DNA from: Paenarthrobacter aurescens TC1
GTDB taxonomy: Bacteria > Actinomycetota > Actinomycetes > Actinomycetales > Micrococcaceae
Length of the DNA: 64,000 nt
Assembly: GCA_000014925.1 (NCBI GenBank)
Contig: CP000474.1
Span: 2,604,001 to 2,668,000 of the forward strand
Direction: 5' to 3'
A program made the translations under genes and the position numbers. Each line of letters begins with the position of its first letter. Positions within the stretch are counted from its first letter, which is position 1. Positions 51,117 through 62,510 of the stretch are shown one piece after another. Below the pieces are notes generated by a model. It was not told the origin of the DNA. It saw only the letters and a list, made by a program, of their open reading frames with translations, and did not search any database.

Positions 51117-52553
51117 CTAGTGGGTGTCGACTGCCGAGATCTCGGACTTGTCTTCGCCCCAGAGGGTGTGGAACGTACCCTCGGTGTCCACGCGACCGTA
51201 GGTGTGTGCACCGAAGAGGTCGCGCTGGCCCTGGATCAGGGCAGCGGCAACGCGCTTGCGGCGCAGGCCGTCGTAGTATGCCAGCGAGGAGGAGAACACC
51301 GGTACCGGGATGCCCAGCTGGACGGCGGTGGCCACAACCCGGCGCCACGCCGGAAGTGCCTCGGCGATGGCCCTGGTGAAAGCCGGCGCGAACAGCAGGT
51401 TGGCGGGCTTCTCCTCGGCTGCGTAGGCCTTGGTGATGTCCTTGAGCAGCTCTGCACGGATGATGCAGCCTGCACGCCACAGCGAAGCGATCTCGTCCAG
51501 CTTGAGGTCCCAGCCGTACTCCTTGGCAGCGGAGGTCAGCATGTCCAGGCCCTGAGCGTAGGAGACCAGCTTGGAGGCGTAGAGCGCCTGGCGGACATCC
51601 TCGACGAAGGTCTCGGGGATTTCCACAGAGGCTTCTTCGCCGGCCAGCAGTTCCTGGCCAAGTTTGCGCTGCTCCGTCTGGGAGGACAGTGCGCGGGCAA
51701 ACACGGACTCGGCAATGCCGGAGACCGGGGACCCGAGTTCCAGGGCGGAGATGACCGTCCAGCGGCCCGTGCCCTTCTGGCCTGCTGCATCCACCACGAC
51801 GTCGACGAACGGCTTGCCCGTCTTTGCGTCAACGTGTCCCAGGACCTCGGCGGAGATTTCGATCAGGAAGGAGGAAAGGTCGCCCTTGTTCCATTCAGCG
51901 AAGATCTTGGACTGCTCGGCGGGCTCAATACCAGCGCCGGAGCGGAGGAGATCGAATGCTTCACCGATGACCTGCATGTCGGCGTATTCAATACCGTTGT
52001 GGACCATCTTGACGAAGTGGCCGGCGCCGTCGGTGCCGATCCATGCACAGCAGGGTTCGCCGTCGACCTTTGCGGAGATCTTTTCCAGCAGCGGGCCGAG
52101 CGCGTCGTAGGACTCGCGCGAGCCACCGGGCATGATGGACGGGCCGTTCAGCGCGCCTTCTTCGCCACCGGAAACGCCGACGCCTACGAAGTGCAGGTCC
52201 TTCTTTGCCAGCGCGGCTTCGCGGCGGCGGGTGTCCTCGTAGTGCGAGTTACCGGCATCGATGATGATGTCGCCGGCTTCAAGCAGCGGTTCCAGCTGCT
52301 CGATCACGTTGTCAACGGGAGCGCCTGCCTTGACCATGATCAGGACACGGCGGGGCTTTTCGAGGGAATCGACGAGTTCCTGCAGCGTTTCCGTGCGGAT
52401 GAAGTCGCCGTCCGTGCCGTGCTTTTCCAGCAGGGCGTCAGTCTTTTCCACGGAGCGGTTGTGGAGAGCCACGGTGAAGCCGTTGCGGGCGAGGTTGCGG
52501 GCCAGGTTGGCACCCATCACCGCAAGGCCGGTGACACCGATGTGTGCTGACAT
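51117..52553 (-). CDS. gnd: 6-phosphogluconate dehydrogenase, decarboxylating
   Basis: Converts 6-phosphogluconate to ribulose 5-phosphate, CO2 and NAD(P)H. 478 aa, dimeric Gnd type. NADP motif GVTGLAVMGANLARNLARNG (6-25), VHNRS-like LHNRSVEKT, substrate-binding VGVSGGEEGALNGPSIMPGG, catalytic Lys in GTDGAGHFVKMVHNGIEYAD, and the C-terminal QRDLFGAHTYGRVD. The ATG at 52553 with GGAG 6 nt upstream is preferred to the TTG at 52556. Position next to a GntR regulator and aldonate dehydrogenases suggests a role in gluconate or idonate use. Confidence 0.97.
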   Translation of the reverse strand: MSAHIGVTGLAVMGANLARNLARNGFTVALHNRSVEKTDALLEKHGTDGDFIRTETLQELVDSLEKPRRVLIMVKAGAPVDNVIEQLEPLLEAGDIIIDAGNSHYEDTRRREAALAKKDLHFVGVGVSGGEEGALNGPSIMPGGSRESYDALGPLLEKISAKVDGEPCCAWIGTDGAGHFVKMVHNGIEYADMQVIGEAFDLLRSGAGIEPAEQSKIFAEWNKGDLSSFLIEISAEVLGHVDAKTGKPFVDVVVDAAGQKGTGRWTVISALELGSPVSGIAESVFARALSSQTEQRKLGQELLAGEEASVEIPETFVEDVRQALYASKLVSYAQGLDMLTSAAKEYGWDLKLDEIASLWRAGCIIRAELLKDITKAYAAEEKPANLLFAPAFTRAIAEALPAWRRVVATAVQLGIPVPVFSSSLAYYDGLRRKRVAAALIQGQRDLFGAHTYGRVDTEGTFHTLWGEDKSEISAVDTH

Positions 52554-52762
52554 CAAAACTCCAATTCGTTCGTGTACAAACAGTCCTCTGTTTCCCGATA
52601 GGGCACGCAGGAAGCGATTTCAAAACCAGGGGCTGCAATAAACCATACGTATTTAAACCTTGGGCGGGAAAGCGGCGCCCACGTTTTGGAACGGTGCCGC
52701 GTCATAAACAGTCTATGATGCCGCCCCGGTTCCAGCTGCGCGCAGGACGCCTCCGCGCCATT
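52554..52762. promoter_or_regulatory. Divergent promoter region gnd / gntR
   Basis: About 210 nt between divergent genes. It contains an AT-rich island (ATAAACCATACGTATTTAAA) with the palindrome ATACGTAT at 52645-52652, a candidate operator for the adjacent FCD-type regulator. TATGCT at 52764-52769 may be a -10 box that would start the gntR mRNA close to its ATG at 52775. Confidence 0.4.
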
Positions 52763-52774
52763 ATGCTTACCTCT

Positions 52775-53503
52775 ATGTCAACCAGCCTCCACCACCGCGC
52801 CGTAGAGCACCTGGGCACCAGGATCGTCGGTGGTGCCCTTCCCACCGGCCACGTCATGTTGGCGGAGCATCTGGAAGACGAACTGAAAGTCTCCCGCTCC
52901 GTGGTCCGTGAAGCTGTCCGTGTGCTGCAATCGCTGGGACTTGTGGAGACCATCAAGCGTGTGGGCATCCGGGTTCTGCCGGCCCATCGATGGAATCCTT
53001 TCGATCCTTTGGTGATTCGTTGGCGTCTTGCCGGCGAGGGGCGTGGCGCCCAGTTGAGGTCGCTCGCCGAGCTGCGTTCCGCCGTCGAGCCTGTCGCAGC
53101 AGAACTGGCCGCCGGGAACGCGCCCGAAAGTCTTCGGCAGGAGTTGGTGGGCATCTCGTTGGCCATGAAGGAAGCCGGCGATGCCGGTGACATGGCCCGG
53201 TTCCTGGACCTCGACATCCGGTTCCATGCACTGGTCCTCTCGGGCTCGGGCAACGAGATGTTCGCCAACTTGATCGGCCAGGTCACGGAGACCCTCACGG
53301 GCCGAACCGTCCACGGGCTCATGCCTGAACACCCCCAAAAGCAGGCGCTTCAGTGGCATATGGACGTGGCCCATGCGATTGACGCCGGAGACGGTTCCCT
53401 GGCGCGCGACGCCGCCGCAAAGATTATGCGTCAGACCATCGCGGAGCTGGCACCCAGCTGGAATGACCAGCCCCGCGTCTTCGTCCCCGTAGCCAAAAAC
53501 TAG
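52775..53503 (+). CDS. GntR-family transcriptional regulator, FadR subfamily (FCD domain)
   Basis: 242 aa. Winged helix at about 5-70 (HHRAVEHLGTRIVGGALPTG, DELKVSRSVVREAVRVLQSLG, KRVGIRVL), then an FCD effector domain (RSAVEPVAAELAAGN, DLDIRFHALVLSGSGNEMFA, HMDVAHAIDAGDGSLARDA) with the His/Asp residues that bind a metal and carboxylate ligands. A sugar-acid effector is plausible from the neighbours gnd, idnO and idnD (inference). Starts at ATG 52775; ATG 52763 is also in frame; no Shine-Dalgarno, possibly leaderless. Its stop abuts the convergent idnD. Confidence 0.9.
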   Translation: MSTSLHHRAVEHLGTRIVGGALPTGHVMLAEHLEDELKVSRSVVREAVRVLQSLGLVETIKRVGIRVLPAHRWNPFDPLVIRWRLAGEGRGAQLRSLAELRSAVEPVAAELAAGNAPESLRQELVGISLAMKEAGDAGDMARFLDLDIRFHALVLSGSGNEMFANLIGQVTETLTGRTVHGLMPEHPQKQALQWHMDVAHAIDAGDGSLARDAAAKIMRQTIAELAPSWNDQPRVFVPVAKN

Positions 53504-54553
53504 CTACGGCTGGAAGTTCAGCAGCACTTTTCCGGATTCAGCGGAGTTCTTCGCCACCTCAAAAGCCTCCAGGCCTTGGGCCAGGCCGAATTCGTGCGTC
53601 ACCACAGGGTCGACGAACAGCGAACCATCGGCCAGGGCAGCAATGACCTCATCGATTTCGTCGTTGAAGCGGAACGAGCCAAGGAGTTCCAGCTCGCGGG
53701 TGATGGCGAGGGAGATGAACACCGGCTGTGGTCCGGATGGCAGTAGTCCCACCATCACCACCTTGCCGCCACGGGTAGCACCCTTGATGGCCGAGGCCAG
53801 TCCAAAATGGCTGCCTGATGATTCAATGACCACGTCTGCGTCCACCGCCGCGATAGCCTCCGCATCGTCGCCTTTGAGGACGTCATCCGCCCCCACGGCG
53901 CGCGCAATCTCCAAGGGCTTGTCATGCATGTCGACGGCGACAATCCGGGCCGCGCCGGCACGCTTCAGGACAGCGACCGCCAGCGCACCGATCGGACCAC
54001 TGCCGATCACGAGCGCCGTTTTTCCTTCGACGTTTCCCGCGCGGCCTACAGCATGCCAAGCGACACTGGCGGGCTCAACCAGGGCGGCAGTGCGGAGATT
54101 CAGGTTCTCCGGAAGAGGGCGCAGCATCCTTGAGGGAAGGTTTGCGTAGCGGCTGAACGCGCCGTCCGCGTGGGGGTACCGGGCAGCACTGCCAAGGTAG
54201 GTGCAGCCCGGGGAGAGGTTGGGCCGGTCCTCGGGGTATCTAACATCGCCGGGTGCCGGGGTTGCCGGGTGGACGGCCACTGGGGTTCCCTCAGCGGGGC
54301 CGGTACCGTCCGCTGCCTGCTGGACCACCACGCCAACGATTTCGTGGCCCAGGACCATGGGCTCTTTGAGGATGGACTCCCCCGCTGCGCCATGCAGCCA
54401 GTAGTGAAGGTCTGATCCGCAGATCCCGCCGTAGGCGATCTCCACGATCGATTCGTCTTCTGCCGGAGTGGCCAGCGGGACGTCCTCAATCCGGAGGTCA
54501 CCTTTGCCGTGGGCAACTACAGCGGGGCCGGAAGCTGGAAGGTTGATGCCCAT
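53504..54553 (-). CDS. idnD: L-idonate 5-dehydrogenase-like zinc alcohol dehydrogenase
   Basis: 349-aa medium-chain dehydrogenase. Zinc/substrate motif IAYGGICGSDLHYWLHG (about 37-53), LGHEIVGVV (GHE), VEPASVAWHAVGRAG, cofactor motif VIGSGPIGALAVAVLKRAG with VDMHDKPLEIA, pointing to NAD(H). The sequence style matches L-idonate 5-dehydrogenase, which oxidises L-idonate to 5-ketogluconate; related polyol substrates cannot be excluded. The loop that binds structural zinc in other MDRs (four Cys) is not evident; only PGCTYLG stands there. Its ATG shares a base with the idnO stop (TGATG), so the two are coupled. Confidence 0.85.
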   Translation of the reverse strand: MGINLPASGPAVVAHGKGDLRIEDVPLATPAEDESIVEIAYGGICGSDLHYWLHGAAGESILKEPMVLGHEIVGVVVQQAADGTGPAEGTPVAVHPATPAPGDVRYPEDRPNLSPGCTYLGSAARYPHADGAFSRYANLPSRMLRPLPENLNLRTAALVEPASVAWHAVGRAGNVEGKTALVIGSGPIGALAVAVLKRAGAARIVAVDMHDKPLEIARAVGADDVLKGDDAEAIAAVDADVVIESSGSHFGLASAIKGATRGGKVVMVGLLPSGPQPVFISLAITRELELLGSFRFNDEIDEVIAALADGSLFVDPVVTHEFGLAQGLEAFEVAKNSAESGKVLLNFQP

Positions 54554-55323
54554 CAGACCACCACCGTCATTCCGCCGTCGACGAAGATCGTCTGGCCGTT
54601 CACGAAGTTCGAGGCCTGGGAGGCGAGCCATACGGTGGGGCCGGCAAGGTCTGCCGTGGTGCCCCATCGGTTGGCCGGGGTCCGGCCAAGGATCCAGGAG
54701 TTGAAGTCAGCATCATCCACCAGGTTTTGGGTCATTTCCGTGTGGATGTACCCCGGCGCGATTCCGTTGATCTGCAAACCGGAGGCGGCCCACTCCGCGG
54801 TCATGGCGCGGGTGAGGTTGCGGAGACCGCCCTTGGCAGCCACATAGGGGGCGATGGTGGGGCGTGCCAGGTCCGTTTGGACCGAGCAGATGTTGATGAT
54901 CTTGCCGTGACCTCGGGGGATCATATGCCTTGCCGCTTCCCGGCCTACCAGGAAGGCGCTGGTGAGGTCGGTGGTGATGACGCGGTCCCAGTCCTTGACG
55001 TCGAGCTCCAGCATGGGGACACGGTGCTGAATTCCGGCGTTGTTCACCAGGATGTCCAAAGGCCCGACGTTCTGTTCGATCCAGGCCACCCCCTCAGCGG
55101 CGGATCCAGCGTCCGTGACGTCGAAGGCCCGGCTGTGGACCCTGCCCACCGGATAGTCAGCGGCCATGGCCTGGTGGGCTTTCTCCAGGCGTTCAGTGCT
55201 GATGCCATTGAGCACCACCGTCGCTCCGGCATCGGCGAGGCCCTTGGCCAGGGCGTTGCCGATTCCCCGGCTTGAACCAGTGACCAAGGCAACCCGCCCG
55301 GTCAGATCGAAAAGTCCACTCAT
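54553..55323 (-). CDS. idnO: Gluconate 5-dehydrogenase-like SDR (IdnO type)
   Basis: 256-aa SDR. LTGRVALVTGSSRGIGNALAKG (N-terminal cofactor motif), LVNNAGIQHRVPMLEL, NICSVQTDLARPTIAPYVAAKGGL (S and YxxxK), IAPGYIHTEMT, and FVDGGMTVVV at the end. The NNAGIQHR and SVQ...AR...PY segments are typical of IdnO, which reduces 5-ketogluconate to D-gluconate. With IdnD it would give idonate to gluconate. An ATG at 55338 is an alternative start, but its Shine-Dalgarno would be too close. Middle gene of the three-gene dehydrogenase operon. Confidence 0.88.
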   Translation of the reverse strand: MSGLFDLTGRVALVTGSSRGIGNALAKGLADAGATVVLNGISTERLEKAHQAMAADYPVGRVHSRAFDVTDAGSAAEGVAWIEQNVGPLDILVNNAGIQHRVPMLELDVKDWDRVITTDLTSAFLVGREAARHMIPRGHGKIINICSVQTDLARPTIAPYVAAKGGLRNLTRAMTAEWAASGLQINGIAPGYIHTEMTQNLVDDADFNSWILGRTPANRWGTTADLAGPTVWLASQASNFVNGQTIFVDGGMTVVV

Positions 55324-55359
55324 AGTTTTGTTCTTCATTCCTTCTGGTGTTGCGCCGGT

Positions 55360-56271
55360 TCAGTTGCTGTTCGACGTCGCGGCTGGTGAAAGGCTTAGGT
55401 TTGCGATGGTCTGACGGACAACGGCGAGGTCGTGATCTCCGAGTCCTTGGCGTTTGAGTTCGGCATAAAGGTCGATTGCCGCCGATGCCATGGGGACGGC
55501 GGAGCCAACGGCTTGTGCGCTGGTGAGCACGAAGCCGAGGTCCTTGTGCATAAACTTTGCCGGCCCGGTAGGCGCATAGTCCTTGGCGGCCAAGCGTGGG
55601 CCAACGTTTTCCAGCACCCGGCTTCCGGCCAGCCCTCCGGAAAGGACCTCAAAGAGTGCCTCCACGTCCATGCCGGCGCGTTCAGCGAGTTCGGCCGCTT
55701 CGGCGAGGGCCGCCGTCGTTGTTCCGACGATGAGTTGGTTGCACGCTTTGGCGAGCGACCCCGAACCCAGCGGCCCCATGCGCCGGACGGTAGTCCCCAT
55801 GGTTTCCAGGAGTGGTTGGAGAGCTTCGAACTGGCCTTCGGTGGCCCCCACCATGATGGCGAGGCTTCCGCGTTGCGCCCCGGCGGTACCGCCGCTGACC
55901 GGCGCATCCACCACCGCGGCGTTGCCGCCGGATGCCTGGTGAACAGTTTCGCCAAACAGTTGGACCGCAGTTGGCGAGACGCTGCTCATGATGACGACGG
56001 CGGTGCCCGGCCGGGGTGCCTTGTTCCGCCATGATTCGAGCAGGTCCGCTGCGGCTTCCTCGATGAAGGGCAGATCGGGGAGCATGAAGATGATGGTGTC
56101 TTCGTCCCGCAGCTCCGCCACGGCTGCTGCGCGCCGGACGCCGGAAAGGCCTTCAAAAACGGTCTCGGATCGGTTCCAGGCGGTGACGTTCCAGCCGGCT
56201 GCCGCCAGGTTTGAGGCCATGGGCGCTCCCATGAGTCCCAAGCCAACGAAGCCCACGCGTTTGCTGGTCAT
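55360..56271 (-). CDS. 3-hydroxyisobutyrate dehydrogenase-family NAD(P)-dependent oxidoreductase
   Basis: 303-aa beta-hydroxyacid dehydrogenase. N-terminal GFVGLGLMGAPMASNLAAAG (cofactor), substrate motif DAPVSGGTAGAQRGSLAIMVG, GSGSLAKACNQLIVGTTTAA with the catalytic Lys, and KDLGFVLTSAQAVGSAVPM. The family includes HIBADH, tartronate semialdehyde reductase, and 4-hydroxy acids; exact substrate unknown. Start ATG at 56271 with GAGGTG upstream; a GTG at 56283 is in frame. First gene of the operon with idnO and idnD, divergent from a D-2-hydroxyacid dehydrogenase across a short operator-bearing gap. Confidence 0.9.
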   Translation of the reverse strand: MTSKRVGFVGLGLMGAPMASNLAAAGWNVTAWNRSETVFEGLSGVRRAAAVAELRDEDTIIFMLPDLPFIEEAAADLLESWRNKAPRPGTAVVIMSSVSPTAVQLFGETVHQASGGNAAVVDAPVSGGTAGAQRGSLAIMVGATEGQFEALQPLLETMGTTVRRMGPLGSGSLAKACNQLIVGTTTAALAEAAELAERAGMDVEALFEVLSGGLAGSRVLENVGPRLAAKDYAPTGPAKFMHKDLGFVLTSAQAVGSAVPMASAAIDLYAELKRQGLGDHDLAVVRQTIANLSLSPAATSNSN

Positions 56272-56333
56272 GGTAGGTAACACCTCACTTCTTTGTGGTC
56301 ATCTACGAGATTACTGTTCAATATCCTAGCCTC

Positions 56334-56351
56334 CATTCAGTATGATGAACA
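56334..56351. promoter_or_regulatory. Putative IclR-type operator in the divergent dehydrogenase promoter
   Basis: CATTCAGTATGATGAACA contains TTCA-N6-TGAA, the same half-sites and spacing as the perfect palindrome upstream of iclR, and the 11-mer TATGATGAACA recurs before the transporter. It overlaps the likely start of the hydroxyacid dehydrogenase mRNA. Confidence 0.6.
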
Positions 56352-56353
56352 CC

Positions 56354-57409
56354 ATGACGACTGATGAACTTACCATCGCCATCGCTGTACCGCTCGAAGC
56401 AGAGCACGTAGAGCTGATCCGCGCTGTAGATCCTTCCGTAACAGTTCTCTACCATCCCGAGCTTCTTCCGCCTGAACGCTTTCCCGCAGATCACGCGGGC
56501 GATCCGGAGTTCAAGCGCACTCCGGAGCAGGAGGAACGCTACTGGGACATGCTGAACCGGGCGCAGGTCCTGTACGGCTTCCCCAACGAAAGTCCAGCCG
56601 GCTTGGCACGCATCGCCGCGAGCAACCCGCACTTGCAGTGGATTCATGCCATGGCAGCGGGAGCGGGTGGCGCGGTCAAGGCTTCCGGGCTCGACCCGGA
56701 AACCCTGCAGAAGTTCCGCGTGACAACGTCCGCGGGCGTCCATGCCCTGCCCTTGGCGGAATTTTCAGCCTTCGGCATCCTCAACGGGTTCAAGCGCAGC
56801 GCCGAGATGGCACAAGATCAAGCCGCCAAGGTTTGGCCCGAGCTGAGAACACCCACCAAACTTGTCAACGGCTCAAAGGTGGTCATCGCAGGCCTCGGCG
56901 AAATTGGCTTGGAGACTGCCCGAATTGCCCGGGCCTTGGGTATGAACGTCAGTGGAACCAAGCGCACTGTGGAAACCATTGAGGGAATCGAGGAGGTCAC
57001 CAACAATGATGGTCTCCCCGGCCTGGTGGCTGATGCCGACGCAGTGATCAATACACTTCCCGGCACGCCGTACACGGAGAAGCTGTTCAACAAGGACATT
57101 TTCTCGGCCATGAAACCCGGAGCCGTGTTCGTCAACGTGGGCCGGGGAACAGTGGTGGATGAGGACGCTTTGCTCGAGGCCTTGAACAATGGCCAGGTGT
57201 CGTATGCCTGCCTTGACGTCTTCGCGGTGGAACCCCTTCCACAGGACAGCCCCTTGTGGAACCATCCCAAGGTCCTGGTGTCCCCGCACACTTCTGCGTT
57301 GAGTGCTGCCGAGAACCGGCTCATCGCCGAACGCTTCTGCAGCAACCTGCGCACCTTCCTGGACGGTGGCGAACTCCCCCATCTGGTTGATCCGGTCCAC
57401 TTCTACTAA
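56354..57409 (+). CDS. D-2-hydroxyacid dehydrogenase
   Basis: 351 aa. Rossmann motif VVIAGLGEIGLETARIARALG (about 175-195), catalytic Arg in VFVNVGRGTVVDE, Glu in DVFAVEPLPQDSPLW and His in SPHTSALSA, in the order R, E, H of the family. The N-terminal lid has WIHAMAAGAGGAV. Members reduce 2-keto acids or oxidise D-2-hydroxy acids; ligand not predictable. ATGs at 56342, 56345 and 56354 are in frame; I chose 56354 because the operator overlaps the others, and no Shine-Dalgarno decides. Convergent with the acyltransferase gene 8 nt away. Confidence 0.9.
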   Translation: MTTDELTIAIAVPLEAEHVELIRAVDPSVTVLYHPELLPPERFPADHAGDPEFKRTPEQEERYWDMLNRAQVLYGFPNESPAGLARIAASNPHLQWIHAMAAGAGGAVKASGLDPETLQKFRVTTSAGVHALPLAEFSAFGILNGFKRSAEMAQDQAAKVWPELRTPTKLVNGSKVVIAGLGEIGLETARIARALGMNVSGTKRTVETIEGIEEVTNNDGLPGLVADADAVINTLPGTPYTEKLFNKDIFSAMKPGAVFVNVGRGTVVDEDALLEALNNGQVSYACLDVFAVEPLPQDSPLWNHPKVLVSPHTSALSAAENRLIAERFCSNLRTFLDGGELPHLVDPVHFY

Positions 57410-57417
57410 ACCGGCAA

Positions 57418-59475
57418 CTACCAACCTGTGGCGTCAAACCACCTCTCGGACAACGTGTCGGTCATGGTCCTGACATAAGTGCTCGAGAGGTGGTTGTCGT
57501 CGAGGTATACATAAACGTTGCCCACGATTCCTGGACAGGCCGTGCCGTCGCAGATCAGGTCCGTCATGTCCAGGATCGACAACCCCGTGAAAGTTCCCTC
57601 CAACTGGTCCAAGGGATTGCTTTCGGCGAGAACCGAGGACTGGGCGGGACGGCAGCGTGAGTCATCCACGCCGGAAGCCATTGCGCACTCACTGGGGCTG
57701 AATGAGAAGCGCGGGTTGTCCCTCATGGCGATGACTTCCACACCTTGATCAGTGATCTCACCCACCAGCTCGTCGAGCCCCCATGTGAGGTCCTCGTCCG
57801 GCGAGTCGGGGACCGCCGCCGTTCCCACAAGGAAAACGGCATCCGGCTGATGGATACGGATGTGTTCCCGGACGTTCCGATTGAAGGTGTTGCACTCGTC
57901 CCCCACCTCGTCCGTTTCGGTCATGAAGGGACAGGCTCCAAACGTGATGGCTTGAACCCGCCAATGGTGTTCCTTGGCCAGGGGGCCGATGGCCCCGAGC
58001 CACTGCAGGGAATGCGATTGGCCCACTACAAAGACGGTCCTCTCGGCGTCAGCGCCGACGTCGTTCTGCTGGCATTCCGCAAACAACACCGGGTCCGTTG
58101 GCCGGAGATCCCCTATACATGCGCCATCGAGCCTTCCCCAGTCTTCCGGAAGCTGCTCAGGGGTTGGCAGTGTCCGCGCGCCCTCGCCAACACGGTCAAC
58201 ATAGCCAGGCAACAACGCCCTGGCCCCCGGGTTGTCGTCAGCATCCTGCGTGGCGATGATGTTCTTCTCCGCTTGCTGCTGGAAACCAAACTGCACCATC
58301 GGTGCTGCAGCGACGGCCAAGCAAACAAGCACCGCCAGCGCCAGGCGCCAACGTTTGGCTTCCGGCCATCGCCATGCACGCAGTGGCTGCTCAACAAACC
58401 GGGTAGTGAGGAACGCCAACAGCAGCGACGCACCCACGATCAAGGTGCCGGTGATCGCGTCTGCATGGTCTTGGCCGATCCACACCAAAGTGATCACCAA
58501 CAGGGGCCAATGCCACAGGTAAAGGGCATATGAAGTAGAGCCCAGCCCCACCAGAAGCTTGGACGAGAGGATCCTGTCAACTCCGAAGCGGCTGCCCGAT
58601 TGCCCCGCGACGATGACAGCCACCGCTGCGAGGGTCGGCCACAGCGCCACGAAGCCCGGAAACGCGGTCTGGACCTGAAGAACAGCGCCACAGCTCAGCA
58701 TTGCGGCTATGCCCACCCACCCCAGCACGCTACTCAGCCCGAGACCGGGCCGAAGATAGGGAAGCAACAGTGCCACCAGGGTGCCCAACGCAAACTCCCA
58801 CAACCGGGCAAAGGTGTCAAAATAGGCCAGTTCCTGATTGGCCGCCGTGAAGTAGATCGAATACGCCAGCGATACTGCGAAGATCAGCCCGAAGATTCCA
58901 AGAAGCACGGCCCGATACCGCAGGTTTAAGCGGCGGCACACCCAGGCCGTGGCAACAAAAATGGCCGGCCAAAGAATAAAAACTTGCCCCTGGATGGACA
59001 GCGACCAAAAATGCTGGAATGGACTCGCCAAGCTGTGGTCCGCCGCATAGTAGTTGACCACCTGCCGCTGGAGCAGCCAATTTTGGACGTAGAACAGCGA
59101 AGCCCATCCTTGGCTGACTATTTCGATCCAGCGTGTGCGGGGAATGAACACGTACGTAGCCGCCAAAGTGCTCAGCAGGACCACGACGACGGCGGGCAAC
59201 AGCCGCCAGAACAGGTGCAGCCAGTGCCGCACCAGTGATACCGGCCGTGCGTCCTCATAGCGGCTGACGAATTGCAGCGTCATGAGGAACGCTGAAATCA
59301 GCAGGAACACGTCCACGCCGCCGGAAACGCGACCGAACCAGATGTGATACGAGACAACCATGAGAACGGCCAAAGATCTTAGGCCCTGGATCTCGGGCCG
59401 AAACTTGGTACCCCCGCTGGCGGCCCGGACCTGCCCGGGACTTTCCGGTGATGCAAGGCCCTTGGTTGCCGTCAT
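57418..59475 (-). CDS. OafA/YrhL-type acyltransferase with C-terminal SGNH domain
   Basis: 685-aa membrane protein. The N-terminal acyltransferase-3 domain (about 10 TM helices) opens with RPEIQGLRSLAVLMVVSYHI, where RPEIQGLRSLAVL and the H of YHIWF are the family's catalytic region. The C-terminal extracytoplasmic part is an SGNH hydrolase-like domain: block I is VVGQSHSLQW (about 488), with Gln where relatives have Asp (GDSHS), and the final block DDNHLSSTYV (about 660) keeps D-x-x-H. Such fusions O-acetylate exported polysaccharide. GGAGGG is 6 nt before ATG 59475. It stands alone inside the hydroxy-acid cluster and has no evident link. Confidence 0.9.
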   Translation of the reverse strand: MTATKGLASPESPGQVRAASGGTKFRPEIQGLRSLAVLMVVSYHIWFGRVSGGVDVFLLISAFLMTLQFVSRYEDARPVSLVRHWLHLFWRLLPAVVVVLLSTLAATYVFIPRTRWIEIVSQGWASLFYVQNWLLQRQVVNYYAADHSLASPFQHFWSLSIQGQVFILWPAIFVATAWVCRRLNLRYRAVLLGIFGLIFAVSLAYSIYFTAANQELAYFDTFARLWEFALGTLVALLLPYLRPGLGLSSVLGWVGIAAMLSCGAVLQVQTAFPGFVALWPTLAAVAVIVAGQSGSRFGVDRILSSKLLVGLGSTSYALYLWHWPLLVITLVWIGQDHADAITGTLIVGASLLLAFLTTRFVEQPLRAWRWPEAKRWRLALAVLVCLAVAAAPMVQFGFQQQAEKNIIATQDADDNPGARALLPGYVDRVGEGARTLPTPEQLPEDWGRLDGACIGDLRPTDPVLFAECQQNDVGADAERTVFVVGQSHSLQWLGAIGPLAKEHHWRVQAITFGACPFMTETDEVGDECNTFNRNVREHIRIHQPDAVFLVGTAAVPDSPDEDLTWGLDELVGEITDQGVEVIAMRDNPRFSFSPSECAMASGVDDSRCRPAQSSVLAESNPLDQLEGTFTGLSILDMTDLICDGTACPGIVGNVYVYLDDNHLSSTYVRTMTDTLSERWFDATGW

Positions 59476-59564
59476 CGACACCCTCCTCATTCGCTGCACC
59501 AATTCTGCACTGCCACAGGTGAATTTCCACCAGCTTCGGAGGACATTTTGTGTTCAAGCGCAAA

Positions 59565-59603
59565 GCAGCGCGGCACCCTCCGCATGAAGGGATACCGCGC
59601 TGC
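59565..59603 (-). terminator. Terminator after the MHS transporter gene
   Basis: GCAGCGCGG (59565-59573) pairs with CCGCGCTGC (59595-59603), with an inner 4-bp stem, followed by TTTGCG on the minus strand. A short near-repeat (GGTTAGGGCGTTGCCTC / GGTTTGGGTGTTGCCTC) lies between it and the transporter stop (about 59632-59667). Confidence 0.75.
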
Positions 59604-59668
59604 CAGGCGTGTGGTCTGTATGGTGCCTCGGGTTAGGGCGTTGCCTCAGGTTTGGGTGTTGCCTCGGC

Positions 59669-61021
59669 CTACTTTGCGTCTTCCGTGCTGACGAGGTCCC
59701 TGCCTGCCGTCTCCGGGGTGAAGAAGGTTGTGACGAAGGAGATGAGCGCAAGGACCAGGGAGTAGATGGCCAGGACCAGCCAGGAGTGGTTGGTGGCGGC
59801 CAACATGAGCGCCCCGAGCAAGGGCGCAAGACCGCCTGCCAGGACCGCTGAAATCTCGCGGCTCATAGCGACACCCGTAAAGCGATACTGGGATCCGAAC
59901 AGTTCAGGCAACAGCGGGCACTGCGGGCCCAGCATGGACTGAACACCGATTGCGATGCCTACGGCCATGACCACCCATACCAAGGTGACGTTGCCCAAGG
60001 TCACCAGATAGAACGCCGGAACCGCGATGATTGCTTGGAACAGTGCCCCGTACCGGTACACCGGGACACGACCGAACCTGTCGGACAAGGCACCGAACGT
60101 GACCACCATAACGGCGGCGAACCCGGCCGCGATCAACAAACCCACAGGACCGATGGAGTTGTTCCCGGCGAAGACACCCGCCGGCATGCTCATGAAGGAC
60201 ACCAGCAGCGCGGAGTAGATCGAAGAGTTGCCGTTCTCGCCCATGCGCAGACCGATTCCCAGCAACACGTTCTTCTTGGAGTGCTTCCAGAGAGCACCAA
60301 TGGGGTTCTTGACCACGTTCTTGTGCTTTTCCAACTCTTGGAACGCGGGCGTTTCCTTGAGCTTCAGGCGAATGAAGATGGCCACGGCGATCAGAATGAA
60401 ACTGGCCAGGAACGGCACGCGCCACAACCAGCCCTGAAGGACGGACTTGTCCGCCATCGTGATGAGCGCGAAAGTTCCGGCACCGAGGAGCGTGCCCAGC
60501 TGGATGCCGACGAACGGCAGAGATGCGAAGAACCCACGACGGCGACGCGGCGCCACTTCAGATATCAGCGTCGTGGCGCCGGCCTGCTCCGCACCGGCCC
60601 CCAGGCCCTGAATGATTCGCAGCGTCACCAGCAGGACAGCGCCGAGCATGCCGGCTTGCTCGAACGTGGGGAGCAGGCCAATGGCAAAGCTGGCTGTTCC
60701 CATCAGCGCGATGGTCAGGATGAGGACCATCTTCCTGCCGAATCTGTCCCCGATGTAGCCGAAGATCAAACCGCCGAACGGACGTGCAGCAAAGCCAACG
60801 CCGTACGTGGCGAACGAAGCAATCAGAGCACCGTCCGGGCCGAGCGGGGAAAAGAACAACGGGCCGAAGATCAGGGCCGAAGCCAAGCCATAAATGTAGA
60901 AGTCGTAGTACTCCAGCGCGGAGCCGACAGAGCTGGCCAGCGTAGCCCGCCGGAGCTGTTCCGGCTCAACTACAGCGTCGTCAGCCTCGGCCGCGAGCGT
61001 TTCATTTGCACGAGTTATCAC
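59669..61021 (-). CDS. MHS-family MFS transporter (metabolite:H+ symporter)
   Basis: 450-aa 12-TM permease. The opening ASSVGSALEYYDFYIYGLAS is the hallmark of the MHS family (KgtP, ShiA, ProP), which import organic acids or osmolytes. Loop 2-3 motif is YIGDRFGRKMVLILTI; PRRRRGFFASLPFVGIQLGT lies in the central loop. The transported compound is probably a hydroxy or sugar acid given its neighbours (inference). Start GTG at 61021 with GAGGGA 6 nt upstream is preferred to GTG at 61027. Preceded by an IclR-type operator, followed by a terminator. Confidence 0.92.
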   Translation of the reverse strand: MITRANETLAAEADDAVVEPEQLRRATLASSVGSALEYYDFYIYGLASALIFGPLFFSPLGPDGALIASFATYGVGFAARPFGGLIFGYIGDRFGRKMVLILTIALMGTASFAIGLLPTFEQAGMLGAVLLVTLRIIQGLGAGAEQAGATTLISEVAPRRRRGFFASLPFVGIQLGTLLGAGTFALITMADKSVLQGWLWRVPFLASFILIAVAIFIRLKLKETPAFQELEKHKNVVKNPIGALWKHSKKNVLLGIGLRMGENGNSSIYSALLVSFMSMPAGVFAGNNSIGPVGLLIAAGFAAVMVVTFGALSDRFGRVPVYRYGALFQAIIAVPAFYLVTLGNVTLVWVVMAVGIAIGVQSMLGPQCPLLPELFGSQYRFTGVAMSREISAVLAGGLAPLLGALMLAATNHSWLVLAIYSLVLALISFVTTFFTPETAGRDLVSTEDAK

Positions 61022-61087
61022 AAGCACTCCCTCAAAATCACCCCGGGCCCCCGTTGGCCCAGCGAGATAGTGATGGCATCACCGCCA

Positions 61088-61105
61088 AGATCACTATGAT
61101 GAACA
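61088..61105. promoter_or_regulatory. Putative IclR-type operator before the MHS transporter
   Basis: AGATCACTATGATGAACA has TCA-N6-TGAACA, differing from the iclR-upstream site by one base in the left half. It lies 67 nt before the transporter start and 65 nt beyond the iclR stop. Confidence 0.5.
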
Positions 61106-61169
61106 GCGTACAGCTTGTTGAACGTACTGCCAAGGTTGTAATCAGATTTATTTAGACGTGCTCCGGTTC

Positions 61170-61964
61170 CTACCCCATCGGGTTCCCCAAGGAACGCGCC
61201 AGCTCTTTGAGTTCCTTGACCATCAGGGCGCCCTGCTCCTCCGAGTACGTGGCCTTCAGCGCGGTCACCGACAAACCCAGACTTGGGCCGTGAGCTCCGT
61301 GGGTCGGCACCGGCACGGCCAGACACACCACACCAACCGTGGACTCTTCATCCTCAAAGGCGAAGCCCTGCTTGCGGATGGCGGAAATCTGGGCCTTGAG
61401 TTCCTCGGCGGTCTTCAGCGAATTGGCCGTCATAGTGGGCAACTGCATGCCATCCGGGAACATCGAGTCAATATCGTGATCATGCAACTGGGCGATCAGC
61501 GCCTTCCCGACGCTGCAGAGCGAGACCGGCATCTTGTCACCGATGTTCGACGTCAACCTGACCGCAGGATGGCCCTCATACCGCGCCAGGTAGATGACGT
61601 GGTCGCCGTCGAGCATCGCAATCCTCACGGTCTCCCCGGACAGCGTAGGCGCCTGCTCACAGTACTTATAGAACTCCTGCACCTCGTCGAGTCGGCTCAG
61701 GTATGCGGCACCCAGTTCCACAAGCTTCCTTCCCAAGGCAAAGTCCGCACCCTGCCTGGTAATGAGGCGCGCTTCTTCCAGCGCCAGCAACAGGTTCGAC
61801 GTAGAAGACTTGGGGATCCCGAGTTCACGAGAGAGATCACTCAGCGTCAGCCGGCCCGTTGGGGACTCAGCGAGCACCTCCAATACAGCCGCAGCGCGGG
61901 TGACGGCAGGCGCCGGCGACGAAGCGCCCAGCCCTTCGGAACGGGAGGTGCGGGAATCGGCCAT
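61170..61964 (-). CDS. IclR-family transcriptional regulator
   Basis: 264 aa. N-terminal winged helix (about 20-80): AVTRAAAVLEVLAESPTGRL, LSDLSRELGIPKSSTSNLLL (recognition helix) and LITRQGADFALGRKLVELGA; C-terminal IclR effector domain with LDGDHVIYLARYEGHPAVRL, MPVSLCSVGKALIA and AVPVPTHGAHGPSLGLSVTA. AAGGAG lies 6 nt before ATG 61964; the frame extends 7 codons upstream without support. A perfect 22-nt palindrome upstream suggests autoregulation, and similar sites mark the transporter and dehydrogenase promoters. The effector is unknown, likely a carboxylate. Confidence 0.93.
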   Translation of the reverse strand: MADSRTSRSEGLGASSPAPAVTRAAAVLEVLAESPTGRLTLSDLSRELGIPKSSTSNLLLALEEARLITRQGADFALGRKLVELGAAYLSRLDEVQEFYKYCEQAPTLSGETVRIAMLDGDHVIYLARYEGHPAVRLTSNIGDKMPVSLCSVGKALIAQLHDHDIDSMFPDGMQLPTMTANSLKTAEELKAQISAIRKQGFAFEDEESTVGVVCLAVPVPTHGAHGPSLGLSVTALKATYSEEQGALMVKELKELARSLGNPMG

Positions 61965-61989
61965 GATTCTCCTTAGGCATCGCAATTCG

Positions 61990-62011
61990 ATTGTTCATTC
62001 TGCTGAACAAT
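61990..62011. promoter_or_regulatory. Perfect palindromic operator upstream of iclR
   Basis: ATTGTTCA (61990-61997) and TGAACAAT (62004-62011) are exact inverse complements around TTCTGC. It lies 26 nt before the iclR start codon, where a regulator would block transcription. Best example of the shared TTCA-N6-TGAA site. Confidence 0.75.
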
Positions 62012-62123
62012 TCTCATCATAGTGGAATGAGTATGCGGGAGTAAGGCGTGTGTATCGCCCCCACCTCCGCCCTCAGCGGGGCCTCACTTTCCAAACCCGA
62101 AAGTTCTCTGTATATTCATCTTC

Positions 62124-62168
62124 GAGCTCTCCACCGCGGCATCCCCCAATAGTCGTGGTGGAGAGCTC
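62124..62168 (-). terminator. 12-bp hairpin after DUF6504 gene
   Basis: GAGCTCTCCACC (62124-62135) pairs exactly with GGTGGAGAGCTC (62157-62168), loop 21 nt, 21 nt after the stop on the minus strand. No U-tract follows. The rest of the 62012-62189 gap shows nothing else. Confidence 0.6.
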
Positions 62169-62189
62169 ATCCATTTCCCGGGCAGGAGA

Positions 62190-62510
62190 CTACGCCGCGG
62201 CGACTTCCTCGCCCCTAAGGCACCAGCCCCCACCGGAGCCATCCCGGACCAGTTCCCAAGTCGCCGTACCTGAGCGGGGGTTGTTCCCCAAGCGAACCTG
62301 GACCTGCCAGACTTCAACGTCAACCCGCCCCTGTCCTCGCGGCATACGGCGGGACTCCTCCCACCACGCGACCCGCTCAAACCAGCGGACAGGTTCCACC
62401 ACAATGCGCCACTCGCGGCCGCCCCTCACAACGACTGCAGGGGCGCCTTGCGCAGCCGTGCGGATGTATACGTGCTCCATGGATGAAACCGTAGGGTGGG
62501 GGTCTGACAT
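62190..62510 (-). CDS. DUF6504 family protein
   Basis: 106-aa protein from ATG 62510; a second ATG at 62480 (MEHVYIRTAAQG) is possible. The stretch VVVRGGREWRIVVEPVRWFE followed by ERVAWWEESRRMPRG and the WELVRDGSGGGWCLRG end matches the small Trp-rich proteins called DUF6504, often found near DnaE2/ImuB genes in actinobacteria; that neighbourhood is absent here. Function unknown. Good codon and amino-acid composition supports coding; competing frames on the other strand do not look like protein. Confidence 0.7.
   Translation of the reverse strand: MSDPHPTVSSMEHVYIRTAAQGAPAVVVRGGREWRIVVEPVRWFERVAWWEESRRMPRGQGRVDVEVWQVQVRLGNNPRSGTATWELVRDGSGGGWCLRGEEVAAA

What the first reader, a model, noticed from the sequence alone, without database searches (positions are those of the whole stretch)
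56334..62011. Three matching operator sites suggest one IclR regulon for a sugar/hydroxy-acid locus
The site upstream of iclR (61990-62011) is a perfect palindrome, ATTGTTCA-N6-TGAACAAT. The same TTCA-N6-TGAA with TGAACA on the right occurs between the two divergent dehydrogenase promoters (56334-56351), and a one-mismatch copy (TCA-N6-TGAACA) lies before the MHS transporter (61088-61105); the last two also share TATGATGAACA. Seen in sequence: the motifs and spacing. Established: IclR regulators commonly autoregulate and bind inverted repeats at catabolic promoters. Inference: one IclR protein controls uptake and oxidation genes here.
Basis: partly seen in the sequence, partly recalled or inferred. 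Interest (0 to 1): 0.7.

Follow-up and report, generated by a model that had tools for sequence, protein, structure and literature searches.

The report
Local IclR regulon with tandem operators
A soil bacterium's regulator gene and its neighbouring uptake and dehydrogenase genes carry matching, evolutionarily conserved docking sites, so one protein very probably switches the whole cluster; this is a new example of a known kind of gene control.

Summary
TTCA-N6-TGAA alone is weak evidence (84 genome copies), but the fuller sites are rare and strongly conserved. I compared 35 loci from named genomes and 51 from unnamed family genomes. A matrix trained only on iclR-promoter sites finds a site in 68 of 69 MHS promoters and 73 of 74 divergent-dehydrogenase promoters. 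Exact copies of the dehydrogenase site occur in 18 of 30 genomes with this IclR and in 0 of 167 without. No other convincing promoter copy turned up in the own genome with the patterns tried.

Best reading: one IclR protein, probably as paired dimers, sits on the -10/start regions of the divergent dehydrogenase promoters and the MHS promoter, and on its own promoter; most likely a repressor lifted by a pathway metabolite. Binding and effector are not shown. Boxes and 18-22-bp tandem spacing are known for IclR regulators (PMC8222616): new member of a known kind. Separately, the MHS leader holds a covarying hairpin.

The parts
61170..61964 (-). iclR: IclR-family regulator (264 aa from the ATG at 61964; ORF open to TTG at 61985)
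   Evidence: PF01614 110.8 bits and PF09339 46.9 bits, both over cut-off; orthologues at >=63% identity in 91 of 395 family genomes, 9 of 32 genera
61990..62011 (.). iclR operator, perfect palindrome ATTGTTCA-N6-TGAACAAT (core 61992-62009), about +1 to +18 of the predicted iclR transcript
   Evidence: 12 of 12 core positions in 36 of 74 iclR promoters, >=9 in all 74; column identity 0.981 in half-sites vs 0.512 outside the site
62011..62028 (.). degenerate partner site 19 bp from the iclR operator, holding the predicted -10 (TATGAT, minus strand, 62016-62021)
   Evidence: score -2.0; second-best hit at -19 in only 12 of 74 loci, score >=3 in 4 of 74
61088..61105 (.).
   Evidence: PWM score 13.3 in the window; conserved
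61107..61124 (.).
   Evidence: PWM score 13.8; 19-bp partner with score >=3 in 65 of 69 loci
59669..61027 (-). MHS-family (metabolite/H+ symporter) transporter
   Evidence: PF00083 116.2 bits; TIGR00883 340.9 bits, below its 443.45 cut-off
61043..61062 (-). leader hairpin CTGGGCC-AACGGG-GGCCCGG before the MHS ribosome-binding site
   Evidence: covariation on 20 chosen sequences: 3 of 7 pairs changed on both sides, 19 cells, 0 of 500 shuffles; scored terminator-like
56315..56332 (.). dehydrogenase operator 1 (TGTTCA-N6-TAGCCT), weak right half; overlaps the predicted -10 (TAGGAT, minus strand, 56323-56328) and start of the hibadh transcript
   Evidence: 19-bp partner with score >=3 in 67 of 74 loci
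   Evidence: PWM score 15.8; half-site columns of the composite identical in all 34 rows
56354..57409 (+). D-2-hydroxyacid dehydrogenase, predicted leaderless start at ATG 56354
   Evidence: PF02826 169.1 bits; 6-7 nt between -10 and ATG in 73 of 74 loci
55360..56271 (-). hibadh: 2-hydroxy-3-oxopropionate / 3-hydroxyisobutyrate dehydrogenase-like (ORF open to GTG 56283)
   Evidence: PF03446 and PF14833; TIGR01505 215.2 bits, below its 340.75 cut-off
54553..55338 (-). SDR (gluconate 5-dehydrogenase-like), same direction as hibadh
   Evidence: PF13561; NF005983 299.6 bits, below its 408 cut-off
53504..54667 (-). zinc alcohol dehydrogenase (L-idonate 5-dehydrogenase-like), same direction; the ORF overlaps sdr, so the true start is probably later
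   Evidence: PF00107 and PF08240; NF007375 232.8 bits, below its 469 cut-off

Best explanation
The IclR protein (61170-61964) controls its own promoter, the MHS transporter promoter and the divergent promoter pair of the hydroxyacid dehydrogenase and the hibadh-sdr-adh genes. It recognises GTTCA-N6-TGAAC boxes. At the two catabolic promoters two such 18-bp boxes abut with 1 bp between them (19 bp centre to centre), which suits two dimers or a tetramer side by side. At the divergent promoter the 37-bp pair covers the predicted -10 and start of both transcripts; at MHS one box holds the likely -10; at iclR the single strong box lies at about +1 to +18. From this geometry the protein most likely represses all four promoters without a ligand and leaves when a substrate or intermediate of the pathway binds. 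Shown: sites, spacing, conservation, co-occurrence. Inferred: binding, oligomer, repression, -10 boxes and transcription starts, ligand.
For: (1): half-site columns are more identical than the aligned columns outside the site: dehydrogenase 1.000 vs 0.755 (34 rows), MHS 0.912 vs 0.770 (35 rows), iclR 0.981 vs 0.512 (36 rows). (2): a matrix from iclR-promoter sites only, spacer ignored, gives a best hit above 95% of the maxima of letter-shuffled promoters in 68 of 69 MHS and 73 of 74 dehydrogenase promoters. (3): partner at exactly 19 bp with score >=3 in 65 of 69 and 67 of 74; in the window these are the two best tandem pairs (weaker-member scores 13.3 and 3.6; best in 40 random sequences 1.1). 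(4): exact ATTCAGTATGATGAACA in 18 of 30 genomes with the orthologue (>=63% identity) and 0 of 167 without; with <=1 mismatch 23 of 30 and 2 of 167. (5): 16 operator positions matched on average 15.3 in 74 loci with IclR, 12.8 in 8 without (Mann-Whitney p = 0.001, not corrected for descent), while the -10 is nearly equally kept (5.4 and 5.3 of 6, p = 0.05). (6): of 21 genome sites within 1 mismatch of TGTTCA-N6-TGAACA, 19 lie inside ORFs, 1 is a terminator-like hairpin, 1 is the iclR promoter.
Against: No binding or expression data. G284 keeps 16 of 16 operator positions although no IclR orthologue was found there at E <= 1e-75, and several IclR-less loci are only mildly decayed. The 8 IclR-less loci are not 8 independent losses, and placements were chosen to maximise operator plus -10 matches. 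Seven of the 30 genomes with IclR have no hadh-site match within 1 mismatch; their sites are diverged. In the 13 fetched loci where dehydrogenase and iclR run in the same direction (L107-L119) the left box of operator 2 is weak (2-3 of 4). The iclR promoter mostly lacks a 19-bp partner (4 of 74 with score >=3). The right half of dehydrogenase operator 1 is poor (TAGCCT). The consensus promoter scan found none of the four promoters I propose; its only hit in 56250-62100 (1.3 expected) is a + strand one on the TATGAT of the MHS site, facing away from MHS. The GntR/FCD regulator next door was not excluded as a co-regulator.
Confidence: 0.85

Rival explanations
1. Same regulon, but IclR is an activator or has a dual role, not a simple repressor.
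For: The family includes activators and dual regulators (PMC8222616 section 4). NCBIfam similarity to the PcaR/PcaU/PobR group (108.3 bits, below its 284.75 cut-off); that group holds activators (recalled).
Against: Sites sit on the predicted -10/start region of the dehydrogenase genes and at about +1 to +18 of iclR, not upstream of -35; starts are predicted, not mapped.
Confidence: 0.15
2. Another regulator, such as the GntR/FCD protein at 52544-53503, binds these sites and IclR is a bystander.
For: A gntR relative is near the cluster in 33 of the 35 named-genome loci.
Against: The motif is strongest at the iclR promoter, tracks the IclR orthologue, and is intact in L033, where no GntR relative was found in the 18.8-kb locus at E 1e-20. 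Boxes and spacing fit IclR-family operators (PMC8222616). A GntR-type site was not searched for.
Confidence: 0.06
3. The shared sequence is only promoter signal (-10 TATGAT and a leaderless start), not an operator.
For: TATGAT is inside operator 2 of the dehydrogenase gene in 55 of 74 loci, with ATG 6-7 nt downstream in 73 of 74.
Against: The matrix ignores the six spacer positions, where most of the -10 lies, and still finds the sites; at MHS the TATGAT is on the strand opposite to the gene; without IclR the -10 is nearly kept while the boxes lose matches.
Confidence: 0.03

Closest known systems
IclR-family group 1 motifs, subgroup NGT-12-ACN (NGTYCRAW4TYGRACN), Suvorova and Gelfand 2021, PMC8222616
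   Same: 18-bp even-length inverted repeat with GTYCR...YGRAC boxes at the same distance; the paper says sugar and sugar-acid genes are frequent, and dehydrogenases (COG1028, COG1012) over-represented, in this subgroup's regulons
   Different: The spacer here is not the A-W4-T of the consensus (GCAGAA, GTATGA, TCATAG, ACAAGC in the window)
IclR-family tandem sites with 18-22 nt between centres (94 of 181 orthologous groups, PMC8222616)
   Same: 19 bp between centres at the MHS and dehydrogenase promoters
   Different: The iclR promoter has one strong site; its 19-bp partner is degenerate
NpdR of Rhodococcus opacus (motif GTTCMRYATMRTGAWS as listed in PMC8222616 Table 1)
   Same: Nearly the same boxes and spacing
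   Different: Controls 2,4,6-trinitrophenol use; no comparison of the proteins was made
TtgV (PDB 2xrn, 2xro) and IclR regulator 1mkm
   Same: Same protein family by sequence: 1mkm E 3.1e-24, TtgV E 1.4e-16; PMC8222616 cites IclR-family proteins binding DNA as tetramers and mentions TtgV's dimer/tetramer asymmetry
   Different: TtgV controls efflux (recalled); operators were not compared here

Membership tests
IclR family of regulators | N-terminal IclR helix-turn-helix and C-terminal IclR_C domain over curated cut-offs | tested here: met
   PF09339 46.9 bits (cut-off 22), PF01614 110.8 bits (cut-off 24)
Characterised IclR equivalogs (IclR, KdgR, AllR, BhcR, PcaR/PcaU/PobR) | NCBIfam equivalog or subfamily cut-off | tested here: not met
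   Best is BhcR, 125.6 bits against a cut-off of 350; so not filed as one of these
IclR-family NGT-12-ACN operator subgroup | GTYCR and YGRAC boxes with 12 bases between GT and AC | tested here: met
   TGTTCA-N6-TGAACA at iclR; 12 of 12 in 36 of 74 and >=9 of 12 in all 74 iclR promoters
IclR-family NGT-12-ACN operator subgroup | Spacer A-W4-T | tested here: not met
   Spacer GCAGAA at iclR, GTATGA at the dehydrogenase, TCATAG and ACAAGC at MHS
IclR-family tandem operators | Two palindromes with centres 18-22 bp apart | tested here: met
   19 bp at MHS in 65 of 69 and dehydrogenase in 67 of 74 loci; not at iclR, 4 of 74
IclR-family tandem operators | Protein binds the sites as paired dimers or a tetramer | not testable with these tools
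   Needs EMSA, footprinting or structure
ANTAR target RNA (considered for the MHS leader hairpin) | Hexaloop with A at position 1 and G at position 4 | tested here: inconclusive
   Loop AANGNN in the 20 aligned sequences, columns 11, 12 and 14 invariant, but A1 and G4 had been required in the search that collected them
ANTAR target RNA (considered for the MHS leader hairpin) | Two such hairpins in tandem | tested here: not met
   Only 25 of 60 leaders have any second A1/G4 hexaloop within reach, at varying places, most often +21 in 16

The most novel reading that the evidence does not exclude
The MHS transporter is under two layers: the tandem IclR operator at the promoter, and a covarying leader hairpin with an AANGNN hexaloop that acts as a new small cis-regulatory RNA (an attenuator or protein-binding hairpin, possibly a reduced ANTAR-type target), found with strong scores only at this transporter in the relatives searched.
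Probability: 0.2. Interest if true: 0.5.

Novelty: new member of a known kind. Interest (0 to 1): 0.35.

Why it matters
It turns a hand-spotted motif into a testable local regulon conserved across several genera of one family, with exact operator coordinates and a clear prediction (37-bp composite operators, 19-bp phasing, leaderless dehydrogenase transcript). It gives the uncharacterised MHS transporter and four dehydrogenases a common control and so probably a common, still unknown, substrate. It adds one well-conserved case to the tandem-operator class of IclR regulators; it does not change the picture of that class.

Tried and rejected
TTCA-N6-TGAA as evidence on its own: rejected, 84 genome copies. 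A wider regulon: TGTTCA-N6-TGAACA with <=1 mismatch (21 sites), TCANNATNNTGAACA (3 sites) and the tandem pattern with <=1 mismatch (MHS, iclR, 5 inside ORFs, 1 intergenic) gave no further convincing promoter. The intergenic one (C1:4265241) is an AT-rich palindrome before an amino-acid-permease-like start and looks like another regulator's site (my reading of the sequence). A <=2-mismatch genome search was not used: its listing was cut and did not show the known iclR site. C1:4272685 (TGTTCACCATAGTGATCA) matched the MHS site closely but lies inside an ORF. GTTCAGTAGGATGAACA before an unrelated MFS gene in g22 genomes (three of four such genomes looked at) was set aside: another gene, and no orthologue of this IclR in those genomes at E <= 1e-40. 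Rfam over 60900-62200: no match up to E = 5. Naming the pathway from family models: rejected, the NCBIfam matches of the cluster's catabolic proteins that I rely on are below their cut-offs. The neighbourhood 45-51 kb showed no gluconate kinase or permease among the 8 ORFs scanned. The first -10-to-ATG count was wrong (it caught an upstream TANNNT) and was redone. The hibadh leader CAC-AANGNN-GTGAGG (39 of 56 loci) was considered as a second hexaloop hairpin; its stem shows no compensatory change and it overlaps a purine-rich ribosome-binding stretch, so I do not claim it. Literature listings on leaderless transcripts and idonate enzymes were not read further.

Sampling notes: L128 (G239) appears to be the same genome as L033 (contig of 2,708,006 bases in both), so the 74 and 69 counts hold at least one duplicate. 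Of 98 family genomes with a dehydrogenase orthologue (>=64% identity; one, G208, truncated with an in-frame stop) and 91 with IclR (89 with both; my tally from the lists), I fetched loci of 51 genomes, chosen by hand: all 9 without IclR, both with IclR but no intact dehydrogenase, the rearranged ones and a spread of the rest. G208 was left out because its upstream end is missing. For the hairpin alignment I used 20 of 22 distinct sequences: L143 looked like a false hit, and L023 has a shifted base that breaks the stem in this register (5 of 7 pairs); leaving L023 out favours the structure, as does the selection (4 inner pairs and >=5 of 7 pairs required). 8 of 69 leaders had no such hairpin.
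Full report
WHAT IS THERE. The window is part of a 5.2-Mb genome (G000:C1:2604001-2668000). From high to low coordinate the cluster reads iclR (-), an MHS-family transporter (-), a SucT-like acyltransferase (-), a D-2-hydroxyacid dehydrogenase, here hadh (+), and, divergent from it, hibadh-sdr-adh (-), then gntR/FCD (+) and gnd (-) (gnd named's query and its sequence). In 35 loci from named Arthrobacter, Paenarthrobacter and Pseudarthrobacter genomes (L001-L035, of 39 loci; the other 4 are distant proteins at 25-29% identity) the order iclR-mhs-hadh<>hibadh-sdr-adh-gntR-gnd is mostly kept; L035 lacks it, L023 lacks hibadh-sdr-adh, and L020 matches only in pieces. The acyltransferase was found in 7 of the 35. 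It is therefore probably an insert and not part of the unit.

THE SITES. The short pattern TTCA-N6-TGAA is not special: 84 genome copies, 46 for the reversed control. The fuller forms are: TGTTCA-N6-TGAACA 3 exact copies, only one at a promoter; TCANNATNNTGAACA 3 copies, two of them here and one inside an ORF.

CONSERVATION. In alignments of 34 to 36 rows the half-site columns are on average 100% (hadh), 91% (mhs) and 98% (iclR) identical, against 76%, 77% and 51% for the aligned columns outside the site; the spacer columns give 94%, 76% and 68%. The composite CTGTTCA-N14-ATTCAGTATGATGAACA of the divergent promoter is intact in all 34 rows.

AN INDEPENDENT TEST. I built a matrix from the iclR-promoter sites alone (in each promoter the best match to TGTTCA-N6-TGAACA), symmetrised it and set the six spacer positions to zero, so that most of the -10 box could not contribute. 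It was then run on the other two promoters of every fetched locus with IclR and readable upstream. The best hit exceeds 95% of the maxima of letter-shuffled promoters in 68 of 69 mhs and 73 of 74 hadh promoters. The second-best hit lies at exactly 19 bp in 61 of 69 and 66 of 74; with a score cut of 3 the 19-bp partner is present in 65 of 69 and 67 of 74. In the window the two best tandem pairs are the mhs and hadh promoters (weaker-member scores 13.3 and 3.6; the best in 40 first-order random sequences of the same length is 1.1). At iclR a partner at 19 bp is weak: score >=3 in 4 of 74.

DOES IT TRACK THE IclR PROTEIN? In 197 family genomes, 30 have an IclR orthologue at >=63% identity (counted by me from its list). 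The exact 17-mer of the hadh site is in 18 of these 30 and in 0 of the other 167; with one mismatch allowed, 23 of 30 and 2 of 167. The two exceptions, G056 and G028, are hadh promoters in genomes without IclR (E <= 1e-40), where the site is altered. The 7 with IclR but no match within one mismatch carry diverged versions. In 395 genomes, hadh without IclR occurs in 9 and IclR without an intact hadh in 2 (G382, G255). For 8 of those 9 the upstream was readable: 12.75 of 16 operator positions on average against 15.28 in 74 loci with IclR. One of the 8, G284, is fully intact, and the 8 are not independent, so this is support, not proof. In G382, where iclR stands in its 9-kb locus without mhs, hadh and the hibadh-sdr-adh genes, its own operator is still perfect.

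HOW IT PROBABLY WORKS. The -10-like TATGAT (56341-56346) lies inside operator 2 and the next ATG follows after 6-7 nt in 73 of 74 loci, with a TANNNT hexamer in 73 of 74 (the placement was fitted to TATGAT), which predicts a leaderless hadh transcript starting at 56354. On the other strand TAGGAT (56323-56328) lies in operator 1 and predicts a hibadh start within its TGTTCA box. One pair of dimers on the 37-bp composite would thus cover both divergent promoters. At mhs a weak -10 (CATAGT, minus strand) lies within one box; at iclR TATGAT precedes the strong box by a few bases. These promoters are my reading: the consensus scan, which asks for a good -35, found none of them. Steric repression is the simplest reading; direction of regulation, starts and ligand are inferred. 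The substrate is open: the enzymes resemble L-idonate and gluconate 5-dehydrogenases, tartronate-semialdehyde reductase and a 2-hydroxyacid dehydrogenase, all under curated cut-offs, and gnd is near by, so a hexonate or keto-hexonate feeding gluconate metabolism is a guess.

COMPARISON WITH WHAT IS KNOWN. I read the abstract, sections 4, 13 and 15 and passages of other sections of PMC8222616. It describes IclR motif subgroup NGT-12-ACN with the same boxes and box distance, frequent for sugar and sugar-acid genes and dehydrogenases, and tandem sites 18-22 nt apart in 94 of 181 orthologous groups, explained by tetramer binding; it also states that the family generally regulates itself and one or two adjacent operons. 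What is seen here matches, save for the spacer composition. Whether this orthologous group is in that paper's supplementary tables I could not check. Searches of the paper library for IclR with Arthrobacter and idonate (none), TGTTCA with IclR and operator (none), Arthrobacter with IclR and regulon (6 papers), IclR family with Arthrobacter, binding site and promoter (1 paper) and RegPrecise with Arthrobacter (5 papers) listed no paper whose title or abstract start describes this regulon; those papers were not read.

A SIDE FINDING. Between the mhs operators and its ribosome-binding site lies a hairpin (61043-61062, minus strand), found in 61 of 69 leaders, one of which (L143) I take for a false hit; 5 of 69 had such a hairpin in a control stretch. 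On 20 distinct sequences, picked for pairing, 3 of 7 pairs change on both sides, 19 cells, reached by 0 of 500 shuffles, and sliding the partner destroys it (the count of pairs with double change alone was reached by 74 of 500 shuffles). A covariance model gives its strongest hit at E 1.2e-5 or better in 12 of 13 same-genus genomes searched, own included (none in G398); in the own genome and the six others whose iclR place is known this hit lies beside iclR, and all other hits are at E 0.001 or worse. The loop has A and G at positions 1 and 4 as in ANTAR targets (PMC3369931, passages read) and the genome has 11 ANTAR matches, but A1 and G4 were required when I collected the hairpins, and the second hairpin that ANTAR targets need is not conserved. 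It is also scored terminator-like (7 such sites found, 5.6 expected in the stretch). I leave its function open.

VERDICT. It is a new member of a known kind.

Noticed in passing
window 61043-61062 (-), leader of the MHS gene: Covarying hairpin with AANGNN hexaloop just before the ribosome-binding site, in 61 of 69 relatives by the search used (one a likely false hit); no Rfam match; function unknown.
   Followed up: partly
window 56283-56298 (-), leader of hibadh: Conserved CAC-AANGNN-GTGAGG before the hibadh start (39 of 56 loci), with much the same loop letters as the MHS hairpin; no compensatory changes, probably a long ribosome-binding stretch.
   Followed up: partly
window 57418-59502 (-): SucT-like acyltransferase between hadh and mhs was found in 7 of 35 named-genome loci, so it looks like an insert in the cluster.
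   Followed up: no
L107-L118 (12 genomes of genus handle g1) and L119 (g22): Rearranged order: hadh and iclR run in the same direction with mhs behind iclR; operator 2 of hadh is weaker there and in some of them operator 1 is the better palindrome (e.g. TGTTCAATATGCCGAACA in L113).
   Followed up: partly
L093-L095 (centre), g22 genomes: GTTCAGTAGGATGAACAC directly before the ATG of an MFS transporter, same layout as the hadh site, in genomes without this IclR orthologue; possibly the operator of a related regulator.
   Followed up: partly
G000:C1:4265241-4265271: AT-rich palindrome AATGAACAACATTCATT between divergent ORFs, before an amino-acid-permease-like start; looks like the site of another regulator.
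   Followed up: no
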